A DNA stretch of 49,048 bases from Ruminococcus sp. (GCA_022511005.1 JAFLSJ010000004.1:1-49048); one strand, 5' to 3'; positions 27,184 through 38,373 are shown, counted from the first letter of the stretch. Notes: generated by a model from the sequence alone, not told the origin. Numbers and translations are program-made.

Positions 27184-27675
27184 ATGAAAAAATCGTTAAG
27201 TCAAAAGGAAAAAGACTTTTGTATCAGCTTTGTTGAAAGCGGTAATCCCATTGAAGCCGCTAAGAAAGCAGGCTATACAAAGTCCCCTGAAAAGTCAGGT
27301 TTAAGGCTTATTTGCAGGTCAGATATTTCCGATGAAATTGCAAGGCTTGAAAGCCATCTACAGCAAACCTTAAGCTTTGCTGCAAAATGCGGTTATAAAC
27401 GGCTTGCGTTCGGAAATATTGCAGATGCCGTTTCACTTTTATTTAAAGAGAAGCCTGCTTTGGAAGATTTAAAGGAAATGGATTTATTTTCTATATCAGA
27501 AATAAAAAAGCCCAAGGACGGTGCAATGGAAATAAAATTTTTTGACAGAATAAAAGCTCTTGAAAAGCTGGAAGAATTAAGCGGAAATAAATCGGGAAGT
27601 GAAAGCCCCTTTTATGACGCATTGATTACAGGCGCTCAAATGCTTTCAAAGGACAGTAAAGATAATGAGTATTAA
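27184..27675 (+). CDS. Phage terminase small subunit
   Basis: MKKSLSQKEKDFCISFVESGNPIEAAKKAGYTKSPEKSGLRLI; terminase_2-like HTH N-terminus. Confidence 0.85.
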   Translation: MKKSLSQKEKDFCISFVESGNPIEAAKKAGYTKSPEKSGLRLICRSDISDEIARLESHLQQTLSFAAKCGYKRLAFGNIADAVSLLFKEKPALEDLKEMDLFSISEIKKPKDGAMEIKFFDRIKALEKLEELSGNKSGSESPFYDALITGAQMLSKDSKDNEY

Positions 27676-28939
27676 ACCTTTTTCAAAAAAACAGCTTCAA
27701 ACTCTTTGCTGGTGGGCTAAAGGCTCACCTTATGAAAACAAGGACGCAATTATTTGCGACGGAGCAGTAAGAAGCGGAAAAACCTTTTGTATGTCACTTT
27801 CGTTCGTATTCTGGAGCTTTTACAAGTTTAATAACAGGGCGTTTGCTTTTTGCGGTAAAACTCAGCGTTCTTTAAGAAGAAATGTTATTACTCCTCTTAT
27901 AAATGAACTTAATAAGCTGGGATTTGTGTGTACCGAAAAAATTTCAAACGGAACCTTAAAAATAAAATATAAAGACAGAGAAAATTTGTTTTATATTTTC
28001 GGCGGTAAGGATGAGGCATCCGCCGCGCTTATTCAGGGTGTTACTCTTGCAGGGGTTTTGTTTGATGAAGCGGCGCTTATGCCAAGGTCTTTTATTGAAC
28101 AGGCACTTGCAAGATGTTCTGTAGAGGGTTCAACCTTTTGGTTTAACTGCAACCCTGAACATCCACAGCATTGGTTTTATAAGGAATGGATTTTGAAAAA
28201 AGAAAGCAAAAACGCCTTGTATATTCATTTTACAATGAGGGATAATCCCTCCCTGAGTCATAAGATGATAGAAAGGTATGAAAGTCTTTACAGCGGTGCT
28301 TTTTACGAACGGTTTATTCTGGGAAAATGGACAGCGGTGTACGGTGCGGTTTATCCCTTTATGGATAATTATGAGTATCCAAAAGTACCTGAAGGTGGCT
28401 TTTCTGAATATGCAGTTTCCTGCGATTACGGAACGGTCAATCCTGCATCCTTCGGTTTATGGGGCAAAAAAGATGGCACCTGGTACCGAATAGATGAATA
28501 CTATTATGATTCAAGAAAAATCGGACGTCAAAAAACCGACGAAGAGCATTATGAGGCTTTGGAGAAGCTTGTAGGAGATAGAAAATTAAAAGCCATTACG
28601 GTTGATCCTTCGGCGGCAAGTTTCATTGAGCTTATTAAGCGCAAAAACAGGTTTAAGGTTATTCCCGCAGAAAATTCTGTTATTAACGGAATACGAAGCG
28701 TATCGTCTGCTTTAAAACAAGGCAAAATTAAAATCTGTGAAAACTGTGCTGACAGTATCAGGGAGTTTTCACTGTATCGTTGGAGTGAAAAAGCAACCGA
28801 TGACGCACCTGTTAAAGAAAACGATCACGCTATGGATGATATAAGATATTTCGTTACAACTATTATGGAGGAGGAAAGCGGATTTTTCGCTTTCGCTTCT
28901 CCCAGATTACAGGAGGATAGCAGTGAGGTTATTTTCTAA
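27665..28939 (+). CDS. Phage terminase large subunit (PBSX family)
   Basis: Walker A-like CDGAVRSGKT, Walker B VLFDEAA, nuclease acidic residues VSCDYGT / TVDPSAASF / DDIRYF. Confidence 0.93.
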   Translation: MSIKPFSKKQLQTLCWWAKGSPYENKDAIICDGAVRSGKTFCMSLSFVFWSFYKFNNRAFAFCGKTQRSLRRNVITPLINELNKLGFVCTEKISNGTLKIKYKDRENLFYIFGGKDEASAALIQGVTLAGVLFDEAALMPRSFIEQALARCSVEGSTFWFNCNPEHPQHWFYKEWILKKESKNALYIHFTMRDNPSLSHKMIERYESLYSGAFYERFILGKWTAVYGAVYPFMDNYEYPKVPEGGFSEYAVSCDYGTVNPASFGLWGKKDGTWYRIDEYYYDSRKIGRQKTDEEHYEALEKLVGDRKLKAITVDPSAASFIELIKRKNRFKVIPAENSVINGIRSVSSALKQGKIKICENCADSIREFSLYRWSEKATDDAPVKENDHAMDDIRYFVTTIMEEESGFFAFASPRLQEDSSEVIF

Positions 28940-30092
28940 AAAGAAAGAAAAAAATACTGATTTTAAAAGTCCGTCTATCGTACAATGTGCAGATGGCAGT
29001 TATTTGACTCATCCCTTTCAAAGTCTTGAAAATTACTCTCCATTTTCCAGTACGGAGTATGAGCTTTATTCCTCTTTAAGAGAAGCTATTCCCATTATAG
29101 ACGGTGCTATCGGAAAGCTTGTAAGACTTACAGGTGGATTTGAAATTAAGTGTGAAAGCAAAGCAACTGAGCATAGGCTTAAACAGTTTTTTGAAAATGT
29201 AAATGTAAACGGTACGACAACGGGCATTATGAGTTTTATGTCAACTTATCTTGACCAGCTTTTAACCTACGGACAAGCAGTAGGAGAAATCGTTACCGAC
29301 AGCAATAATCTTGGTATTTATGCACTTTACAACGGTTCTTTAAAGGATATATCGGTAAAGCGGGGAGAAAATCCACTTTCGGTTATTGTTTGCAAAAATG
29401 ATTTTGAAAAAACGCCCTTACCTTATCAGGAACTTTTAGCTTTTTCTCTTTTAAATCAGGAGCCCGGCAGGCTTAAGGGAACATCGCTTCTGAAAGGCTT
29501 ACCTTTTGTAAGCTCCATTCTGCTTAAAATATTTAACACTATCGGAGTGAACTTTGAGCGTGTAGGAAATTTAAGATTTGCAGTTACCTACAAGCCTGAT
29601 TCCAATACTCCGTTGTCAAATACAAAGGAACAGGCAAAGCAGATTGCAAAAGAATGGAGCAGGGCTATGAGGTGTAGGGAAAGCGTATGCGATTTTGTCA
29701 GTGCCGGAGATGTTTCCATTAAAGTAATCGGTGCAGACAGTCAGGTGCTTGACTGTGATATTCCTATAAGACATATGCTTGAGCAGATTGTATCAAAGCT
29801 TTCAATTCCGCCGTTTTTGCTTGGTCTTAACTGGTCCAGCACAGAGAGAATGAGTGCACAGCAAACAGATATTTTAACAAGTGAGCTTGAATATTACAGA
29901 CAGCAGTTAAATCCTGTTATAAGAAAAATCTGTTCTGTATGGATGAGATTAAACGGAATTTGTGAAGAATTTGAAATTGTCTGGGATAACATTAACTTAC
30001 AGGATGAAATTCAGCTTGCTCAGGCAAGACTTTATAACGCACAGGCAGACGCTCTTATAAACAGTGATAAGAATGATACAAAGGGGGAATAA
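28923..30092 (+). CDS. Phage portal protein (GTG start)
   Basis: 389 aa; position after terL; LEQIVSKLSIPPFLLGLNWSSTERMSAQQTDILTSELEYYRQQLNPVI portal signature. Confidence 0.88.
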   Translation: MRLFSKKKEKNTDFKSPSIVQCADGSYLTHPFQSLENYSPFSSTEYELYSSLREAIPIIDGAIGKLVRLTGGFEIKCESKATEHRLKQFFENVNVNGTTTGIMSFMSTYLDQLLTYGQAVGEIVTDSNNLGIYALYNGSLKDISVKRGENPLSVIVCKNDFEKTPLPYQELLAFSLLNQEPGRLKGTSLLKGLPFVSSILLKIFNTIGVNFERVGNLRFAVTYKPDSNTPLSNTKEQAKQIAKEWSRAMRCRESVCDFVSAGDVSIKVIGADSQVLDCDIPIRHMLEQIVSKLSIPPFLLGLNWSSTERMSAQQTDILTSELEYYRQQLNPVIRKICSVWMRLNGICEEFEIVWDNINLQDEIQLAQARLYNAQADALINSDKNDTKGE

Positions 30093-30093
30093 A

Positions 30094-37321: not shown

Positions 37322-37887
37322 TGGCAGTTATAAGTTCTCTTATTAAAGCTCTTACACCTCTTAATATTTATAATATCACCTATGGTACAAATATATATAA
37401 TGAGCTTTACGTGTATGCAAACGAGCTGGATAGGTTAAATCTTGAAATCGACACTCTTTTAAGGGAAGCATTTGTTTATACGGCCGAAAGCTATGGACTT
37501 GCAAATATTGAAAAGATCTACACCGCAGAGGATACATCAAATACTGCACAGACAAGACGTGAAAAATTACTTGAAAGATTAAGTATCAATGACAGTTATT
37601 TTACTTTAAAGGATATGAAAAAATCTTTACTGGGACTGGGAGTCAAAGACAGCAGAATATTGGAATTTCCCTCAAGACGTACTATTGTTTTTGAAATTTC
37701 AGGTAAATATACCGACGCTGAAATTAATTTTATTAAAGCAGAAATTAAAAAGCTTGCACCTGTTGCATTTGAAATTCAGATTTACTTCGGGGGATTAAGC
37801 TGGAGCGACTTTGAGGGTAAAAACTTAAGCTTCAGTAGTATGGATTTACAGAATTTATCATGGGAACAAATAGATGAATTAGAATAA
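37321..37887 (+). CDS. Putative phage tail protein (XkdU/YmfQ, gpI-like)
   Basis: 188 aa directly after baseplate J; LDRLNLEIDTLLREAFVYTAESYGLANIEKIY. Confidence 0.75.
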   Translation: MAVISSLIKALTPLNIYNITYGTNIYNELYVYANELDRLNLEIDTLLREAFVYTAESYGLANIEKIYTAEDTSNTAQTRREKLLERLSINDSYFTLKDMKKSLLGLGVKDSRILEFPSRRTIVFEISGKYTDAEINFIKAEIKKLAPVAFEIQIYFGGLSWSDFEGKNLSFSSMDLQNLSWEQIDELE

Positions 37888-37902
37888 AGAAAGGAAGCTA
37901 CA

Positions 37903-38373
37903 ATGTCATCAACAAATAAAACAACCAATCTTAAACTAAACAGCTGGATTTCATCCGATAAGCCTAAACGAGTAGATTTTGTGGAGGATAATACAATTAT
38001 TGATGAAAAGCTGGGAGGACATATACTTAATACAAATATTCACTTAACAACGCAGGAGAGGGAAAAACTCAATTCTATGGTTTATGCAACAAGCTATTCT
38101 GGAACAGGCACGCAAAGCCGCAGTTTCAGTTTATCATTTGCTCCGTCATTTGTTATTGTTTTTAAAAGATTTGACAGCTTTAACAGTTATGTTTCAAGCG
38201 GTAGTTACACAAAGATAAACGGTGCTTTTTTCTCTACAAAAGAAACAACAGATGACTGCGGAAGCATAAGCGGTTCATCTCTTACGGTTAAGCAAAGTAC
38301 ATCTGCTTCAGACGGAGTGTTTTATAATCTTAATGAGCAGTATGGTCAGTATGTAATAGTCGCTTTCAGATGA
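37903..38373 (+). CDS. Short tail fibre/receptor-binding-like protein
   Basis: N-terminus TTNLKLNSWISSDKPKRVDFVEDNTIIDEKLGGHILNTNIHLTTQEREKL typical of clostridial phage tail fibres. Confidence 0.75.
   Translation: MSSTNKTTNLKLNSWISSDKPKRVDFVEDNTIIDEKLGGHILNTNIHLTTQEREKLNSMVYATSYSGTGTQSRSFSLSFAPSFVIVFKRFDSFNSYVSSGSYTKINGAFFSTKETTDDCGSISGSSLTVKQSTSASDGVFYNLNEQYGQYVIVAFR

What the first reader, a model, noticed from the sequence alone, without database searches (positions are those of the whole stretch)
27184..38373. Compact PBSX-like head-plus-baseplate operon with no integration, replication, lysis, sheath or tape-measure genes: candidate domesticated or GTA-like particle
Seen in sequence: 18 consecutive plus-strand genes, mostly overlapping or separated by under 35 nt, running terS, terL, portal, protease, decoration, capsid, neck genes, short tube-like protein, LysM protein, baseplate hub, spike, gp25-like, baseplate J, gpI-like and fibre, then a terminator at 38467 and an unrelated convergent gene. 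All frames are intact and terL keeps its Walker A/B and acidic nuclease residues. I find no integrase, repressor, replication, holin/endolysin, sheath (~350+ aa) or tape measure. Established knowledge: PBSX (xkd genes) is a domesticated Bacillus particle that packages host DNA, and RcGTA-type agents lack integrase genes and depend on host regulation. Inference: an 11.2-kb intact packaging-plus-capsid-plus-baseplate set flanked directly by host genes suggests a host-maintained DNA-packaging particle with an almost absent tail, which would be unusual. A streamlined or partly deleted prophage is the main alternative.
Basis: partly seen in the sequence, partly recalled or inferred. Interest (0 to 1): 0.88.

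Follow-up and report, generated by a model that had tools for sequence, protein, structure and literature searches.

The report
Ancient domesticated short-tailed phage particle
Gut bacteria related to Ruminococcus bromii carry, as an inherited part of their own chromosome, the genes for a DNA-packaging phage head on a tiny tail, passed down with the host across several bacterial families and most likely used to package and move the bacteria's own DNA.

Summary
Window 27184-38373 is an intact 18-gene operon (terminase, portal, protease, capsid, neck, tail terminator, tube, a 48-aa microprotein, LysM, hub, spike, J baseplate, fibre) among host genes, with no integrase nearby and no sheath in the genome. 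It is not a recent or decaying prophage: it is single copy in 54 of 60 genomes of its genus and recurs in several other families of the order. Its genes are open and constrained (dN/dS 0.05-0.23 for 17 genes), and its tree tracks rpoB over 65 genomes (39 of 62 splits shared, shuffles 0.27; Mantel r 0.78). Some relatives keep a sheath; sheath and baseplate were lost repeatedly. The microprotein shares position and a C-terminal motif with 76-230-aa proteins in sheathed relatives, suggesting a shrunken tape measure. Best reading: a vertically inherited, gene-transfer-agent-like particle with a tail of one or two rings. Closest known system: FpGTA of Faecalibacterium (PMC12946183); homology to it could not be tested. 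DNA packaging is inferred from intact terminase and portal; packaging of random host DNA and transfer are untested, and a PBSX-like killing particle remains possible.

The parts
27082..27127 (+). leader hairpin with U-run (terminator-like) in the operon's 5' region
   Evidence: fold z -4.5; hairpin core in 45 of 49 genus loci, 6 of 11 pairs change on both sides
27184..27675 (+). terS, terminase small subunit
   Evidence: PF03592 E 1.8e-14
27665..28939 (+). terL, terminase large subunit, motifs intact
   Evidence: phrog_2 E 4.9e-51; PF03237, PF17289
28923..30092 (+). portal
   Evidence: phrog_30703 E 5e-128; PF04860
30064..31095 (+). putative head maturation protease
   Evidence: position; weak phrog_18299; conserved in relatives
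31113..31454 (+). cement/decoration protein
   Evidence: phrog_4588 E 4.7e-13; PF09956
31468..32478 (+). major capsid protein
   Evidence: phrog_3922 E 8.5e-102; PF25209
32487..32843 (+). g7, probable neck adaptor
   Evidence: position and conservation
32819..33199 (+). g8, probable neck stopper
   Evidence: position and conservation
33180..33629 (+). g9, tail terminator
   Evidence: AlphaFold2 model pLDDT 87; Foldseek to phage neck/terminator proteins incl. lambda gpU
33626..33985 (+). g10, tail tube protein
   Evidence: AlphaFold2 model pLDDT 90; Foldseek to tail tube proteins E 4e-7, incl. a native GTA chain
33999..34145 (+). g11, 48-aa microprotein at the tape-measure position, probable remnant ruler
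   Evidence: short ORF with conserved C-terminal motif in most genus loci; longer counterparts by position and motif in sheathed relatives
34142..34660 (+). g12, LysM protein
   Evidence: PF01476 E 1.8e-7; profile
34654..35610 (+). g13, baseplate hub (Mu gp44-like)
   Evidence: phrog_177; profile to 3d37 E 3e-6
35597..35929 (+). g14, probable spike
   Evidence: position; weak profile match to Mu gp45, E 0.075
35929..36276 (+). g15, gp25-like baseplate wedge
   Evidence: phrog_120; PF10934 below cut-off
36263..37321 (+). g16, baseplate J wedge
   Evidence: PF04865 E 1.2e-52; sole copy in genome
37321..37887 (+). g17, Mu gp48/gpI-like wedge
   Evidence: phrog_521 E 6.6e-12; PF10076 just below cut-off
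37903..38373 (+). g18, small fibre/tip protein
   Evidence: position; conserved ~155 aa in many genus loci
38467..38496 (+). terminator hairpin closing the operon
   Evidence: read in sequence

Best explanation
The operon encodes a gene-transfer-agent-like particle that the host lineage captured from a contractile-tailed phage before several families of this order split, and has inherited vertically since. Shown: single copy, intact genes, purifying selection, co-descent with the host, and graded loss of sheath and baseplate across relatives. Inferred: TerS/TerL fill a small capsid through the portal with pieces of host chromosome; a terminator, one or two tube rings set by a 48-aa ruler, and a hub-spike-J baseplate with LysM protein and fibre form a minimal non-contractile tail for delivery to related cells. 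Production is presumably switched by the host; a conserved terminator-like hairpin in the leader may be a gate. Release by an unlinked lysis function is assumed, not found.
For: 54 of 60 genus genomes with one copy each; five of the six without are 75-89% complete. Order sample 72 of 399, clustered by family, nearly always one copy; another family 70 of 151; only three distant hits beyond the order in a class sample. Operon/rpoB trees: 39 of 62 splits shared (shuffle mean 0.27, max 2), 2 of 38 strong splits in conflict, Mantel 0.78 overall, 0.83 within genus, 0/2000 shuffles. dN/dS 0.05-0.23 against the nearest species for 17 genes. No integrase, sheath or att-like repeats. Tube and terminator folds. 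Experimental precedent in the same order: FpGTA particles carry ~9 kb of random host DNA, and GTA-like packaging without identified genes occurs in Ruminococcus callidus and others (PMC12946183).
Against: No particle, packaged DNA or transfer was observed. No lysis gene set was found; the one holin family tried is present in only 18 of 60 sampled genomes. Homology to FpGTA was not tested because no Faecalibacterium sequence could be identified. One complete sibling genome (G056) lacks the capsid match, and the chromosomal address differs between species. The tree test used FastTree and one host marker.
Confidence: 0.72

Rival explanations
1. A domesticated particle of the PBSX kind: it packages host DNA but does not deliver it, and serves to kill or damage competing relatives through its LysM/baseplate/fibre end.
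For: Gene order parallels PBSX-type tails (recalled); baseplate and LysM retained in the genus; the paper raises the same possibility for FpGTA.
Against: The sheath, the motor of contractile killing, is absent here and was lost repeatedly elsewhere while terminase, portal and capsid were kept. Of 11 relatives without J in the operon, 8 have no PF04865 protein anywhere in the genome, so the baseplate is dispensable while packaging genes are not.
Confidence: 0.15
2. A streamlined or partly deleted prophage, or a phage satellite, still mobile between strains.
For: Phage-derived structural genes; IMG/VR and INPHARED list such contigs as viral.
Against: Congruence with rpoB, one copy per genome, no integrase or att-like repeats, purifying selection; two inspected 'phage' records are chromosome, one with rpoA, secY and rnf genes beside the operon.
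Confidence: 0.05
3. A domesticated capsid with another role (for example DNA shedding, storage or a protein container), with the tail a fading relic.
For: In several families only head, neck and sometimes hub genes remain, with no Baseplate_J anywhere in some nearly complete genomes.
Against: In the window's genus all baseplate genes stay open and constrained, so a tail end is still needed here.
Confidence: 0.08

Closest known systems
FpGTA of Faecalibacterium (PMC12946183, 2026)
   Same: Same order; ~10 kb head/packaging operon with a small terminase, no replication or integrase genes, in every genome of its genus examined, tail not visible or very short.
   Different: FpGTA is split into two operons, with baseplate, fibre, holin and endolysin in the second; here head and baseplate are one operon and no linked lysis genes were found. 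Sequence homology not tested.
PBSX (xkd operon) of Bacillus subtilis
   Same: Head, neck, tube, LysM, hub, gp25, J, gp48 order is as recalled for the xkd genes; domesticated.
   Different: Lacks sheath, tail chaperone and long tape measure; not linked to lysis or repressor genes.
RcGTA/CcGTA of Alphaproteobacteria
   Same: Vertically inherited structural cluster without integrase; terminator-gated expression is known in CcGTA (PMC11150451); the tube model resembles a native GTA chain.
   Different: A siphovirus-type lineage with a longer tail (recalled); here a contractile-phage-derived baseplate with almost no tail.
Mu-type/contractile baseplates; diffocin and monocin tailocins
   Same: Hub, J and tube components.
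   Different: Those have a full tube and tape measure, and tailocins have no head; this keeps the head and almost no tail.

Membership tests
Gene transfer agent | Phage-derived capsid, portal and terminase genes, intact | tested here: met
Gene transfer agent | No integrase, replication or repressor genes at the locus | tested here: met
Gene transfer agent | Vertical inheritance with the host lineage | tested here: met
Gene transfer agent | Purifying selection on structural genes | tested here: met
   dN/dS 0.05-0.23 for 17 genes against the nearest species (g11 not measured)
Gene transfer agent | Packages random host DNA, not its own locus | not testable with these tools
   needs particle DNA sequencing; precedent in the same order only
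Gene transfer agent | Delivers DNA to recipient cells | not testable with these tools
   needs a transfer assay
FpGTA lineage | Capsid/portal sequence homology to FpGTA I | not tested
   no named Faecalibacterium homologue among the hits listed
FpGTA lineage | Separate operon II with baseplate, fibre, holin, endolysin | tested here: not met
   baseplate lies in the same operon and J is unique in the genome
PBSX-type defective phage | Contractile tail with sheath and tape measure | tested here: not met
   a micro-ORF instead
PBSX-type defective phage | Colinear head-to-baseplate gene order | tested here: inconclusive
   order matches from memory of xkd; no direct sequence comparison run
Active temperate prophage | Integrase and att repeats | tested here: not met

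The most novel reading that the evidence does not exclude
One phage capture at the base of several families gave an order-wide, vertically inherited packaging particle whose tail has been pared away repeatedly, from contractile mini-tail to sheathless stub to head-only machine, with the tape measure shrinking from about 200 to about 45 residues. FpGTA and the unexplained packaging in Ruminococcus callidus would be members, and the head-only forms would need a delivery route, or a purpose, not known for any GTA.
Probability: 0.45. Interest if true: 0.88.

Novelty: new variant of a known kind. Interest (0 to 1): 0.78.

Why it matters
GTAs outside Alphaproteobacteria are very few, and the genes behind most GTA-like packaging seen in the human gut are unidentified (PMC12946183). 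This names a concrete, single-copy, conserved gene set in a keystone starch-degrader group and in several other gut families, makes it testable by deletion, and offers a natural series for asking how little tail a DNA-delivering particle needs. It also suggests that hundreds of ~10-kb 'viral' database contigs are host chromosome.

Tried and rejected
Conserved ktrA/Rrf2 synteny: rejected, shared only with the nearest species. A split, FpGTA-like operon in G874: its J lies ~4 kb from a weak tape-measure match, so probably an ordinary prophage; not claimed. A conserved lysis partner through PF05105: only 18 of 60 genomes. Identifying a Faecalibacterium homologue by name: three protein searches gave Ruminococcus, Acutalibacteraceae and Candidatus Soleaferrea, not Faecalibacterium. 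Leader motif as a regulon: 1-6 copies per genome against near-zero control, but other sites could not be fetched. Median dN/dS over all pairs is inflated by saturation and was set aside. A first rpoB tree took antisense frames in GC-rich genomes and was redone. PADLOC models found nothing in five genes tried.

Full report
Observation. Eighteen tightly packed plus-strand genes run from terS (27184) to a small fibre (38373), all open, ending in a terminator hairpin near 38467-38496. Family models assign packaging, head and baseplate functions. The hub profile matches Mu gp44-type tail proteins (3d37, E 3e-6). Structure prediction adds two: gene 10 (pLDDT 90) is a tail-tube fold, nearest to phage 812, monocin and other tubes and to a native GTA chain; gene 9 (pLDDT 87) resembles tail terminators including lambda gpU. 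PF04984 finds no sheath in the genome, and the only Baseplate_J protein is the one in the operon. The surrounding window ORFs are ordinary host genes, and no direct repeats bracket the operon.

Distribution. The capsid is found once in 54 of 60 genomes of the genus; five of the six without it are 75-89% complete, one (G056) is listed as complete. Searching 399 genomes of the order gave 72 hits, nearly always a single copy and concentrated in a few families; a second family has it in 70 of 151. In 394 genomes of the class only three distant matches lie outside the order; two of those loci have genes of tape-measure size, 1761 and 1781 aa, as expected of true phages. Names attached to relatives are Ruminococcus sp., Acutalibacteraceae and Ruminococcus sp. 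YE282 (76% identical capsid), and Candidatus Soleaferrea massiliensis. YE282 figures among R. bromii isolates in PMC5814915, so I infer that the window comes from the R. bromii group.

Descent. Concatenated TerL, portal, protease and capsid (1451 columns) and RpoB (1227 columns) from 65 genomes give similar trees: 39 of 62 splits shared against a shuffle mean of 0.27, Mantel r 0.78 overall, 0.83 within the genus, 0.75-0.95 within families, no shuffle of 2000 as high, and 2 of 38 strongly supported operon splits in conflict. The genus and one other family form the same groups in both trees; two families are not single groups in the operon tree. Against the nearest species dN/dS is 0.05-0.23 for the 17 genes that could be measured, with dS 0.36-0.96. 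Chromosomal neighbours vary: the window's ktr/rrf2 flank is shared only with that species, while elsewhere in the genus a GerA-type germination gene upstream and prsA-mfd downstream are common. I read this as old vertical inheritance with local rearrangement.

Tail reduction. Gene order in about 60 relatives shows sheath (PF04984 confirmed), tube and chaperone in one family and parts of another; sheath absent throughout the sample of the window's family; and head-plus-hub or head-only loci elsewhere. Parsimony needs 5-6 changes for the sheath and 7 for J in the operon. No relative inside this clade has a long tape measure in the locus. At that position sheathed relatives have 76-230-aa, low-complexity, probably disordered proteins, many ending in R-D-A/S-R-R-Y-D; the genus has a 40-52-aa ORF with the motif E-D/E-S/A-R-R-Y. 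I infer that g11 is a shrunken ruler; at about 1.5 angstrom per residue (general knowledge of lambda-type tape measures) it would allow one or two tube rings.

Regulation. In 45 of 49 genus loci a hairpin with the core TTGCAT-N6-ATGCAA or close variants stands 36-149 nt before terS. Of its 11 pairs 6 show two-sided changes, 26 cells against 8 in shuffles; the letters TTG/CAA were part of the search pattern, so those pairs carry no weight. The upstream gene is divergent in 29 of 43 cases, so the hairpin usually cannot end an upstream transcript. A leader attenuator or antitermination gate is possible; CcGTA uses antitermination (PMC11150451). This is inference.

Function. Intact terminase, portal and capsid over this depth imply that DNA packaging is selected. 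FpGTA in Faecalibacterium shows ~40 nm particles with ~9 kb DNA, and the same paper reports GTA-like packaging without identified genes in Ruminococcus callidus and other families. The window operon is the kind of gene set that would explain such packaging. It differs from FpGTA in keeping the baseplate in one operon. Whether FpGTA belongs to this lineage could not be tested here.

Database note. Two inspected 'Bacteriophage sp.' records containing this operon are bacterial chromosome: one carries rnf, rpoA and secY genes beside it, the other GerA. IMG/VR holds 342 related contigs, many about 10-14 kb, probably the same artefact.

Noticed in passing
L303 (G373:C72) 8971-9900: Orphan capsid-like gene (309 aa) with no terminase or portal nearby, in a genome that also has the normal operon; unexplained.
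   Followed up: no
eight genus genomes, e.g. G041, G036, G032: The leader palindrome TTGCATN6ATGCAA occurs 1-6 times per genome with almost no hits for the reversed control; possibly a small regulon or a repeated terminator type.
   Followed up: partly
L455, L456 (MT835508.1, MT835952.1) and many IMG/VR contigs: Host chromosome carrying the operon is deposited as phage sequence.
   Followed up: partly
window 27030-27065: Palindrome TTGACTTTAAGGTCAA between rrf2 and the operon overlaps a good promoter for rrf2; likely its own operator.
   Followed up: no
window 2073-2297: T-box leader (RF00230) upstream of a phenylalanyl-tRNA synthetase alpha gene.
   Followed up: no
G000:C22:25446-26084: Tape-measure domain in a 2607-aa frame, a sign of a separate ordinary prophage in this genome.
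   Followed up: no
genus loci upstream of terS: A spore germination GerA-family gene is a frequent divergent neighbour of the operon in the genus.
   Followed up: partly
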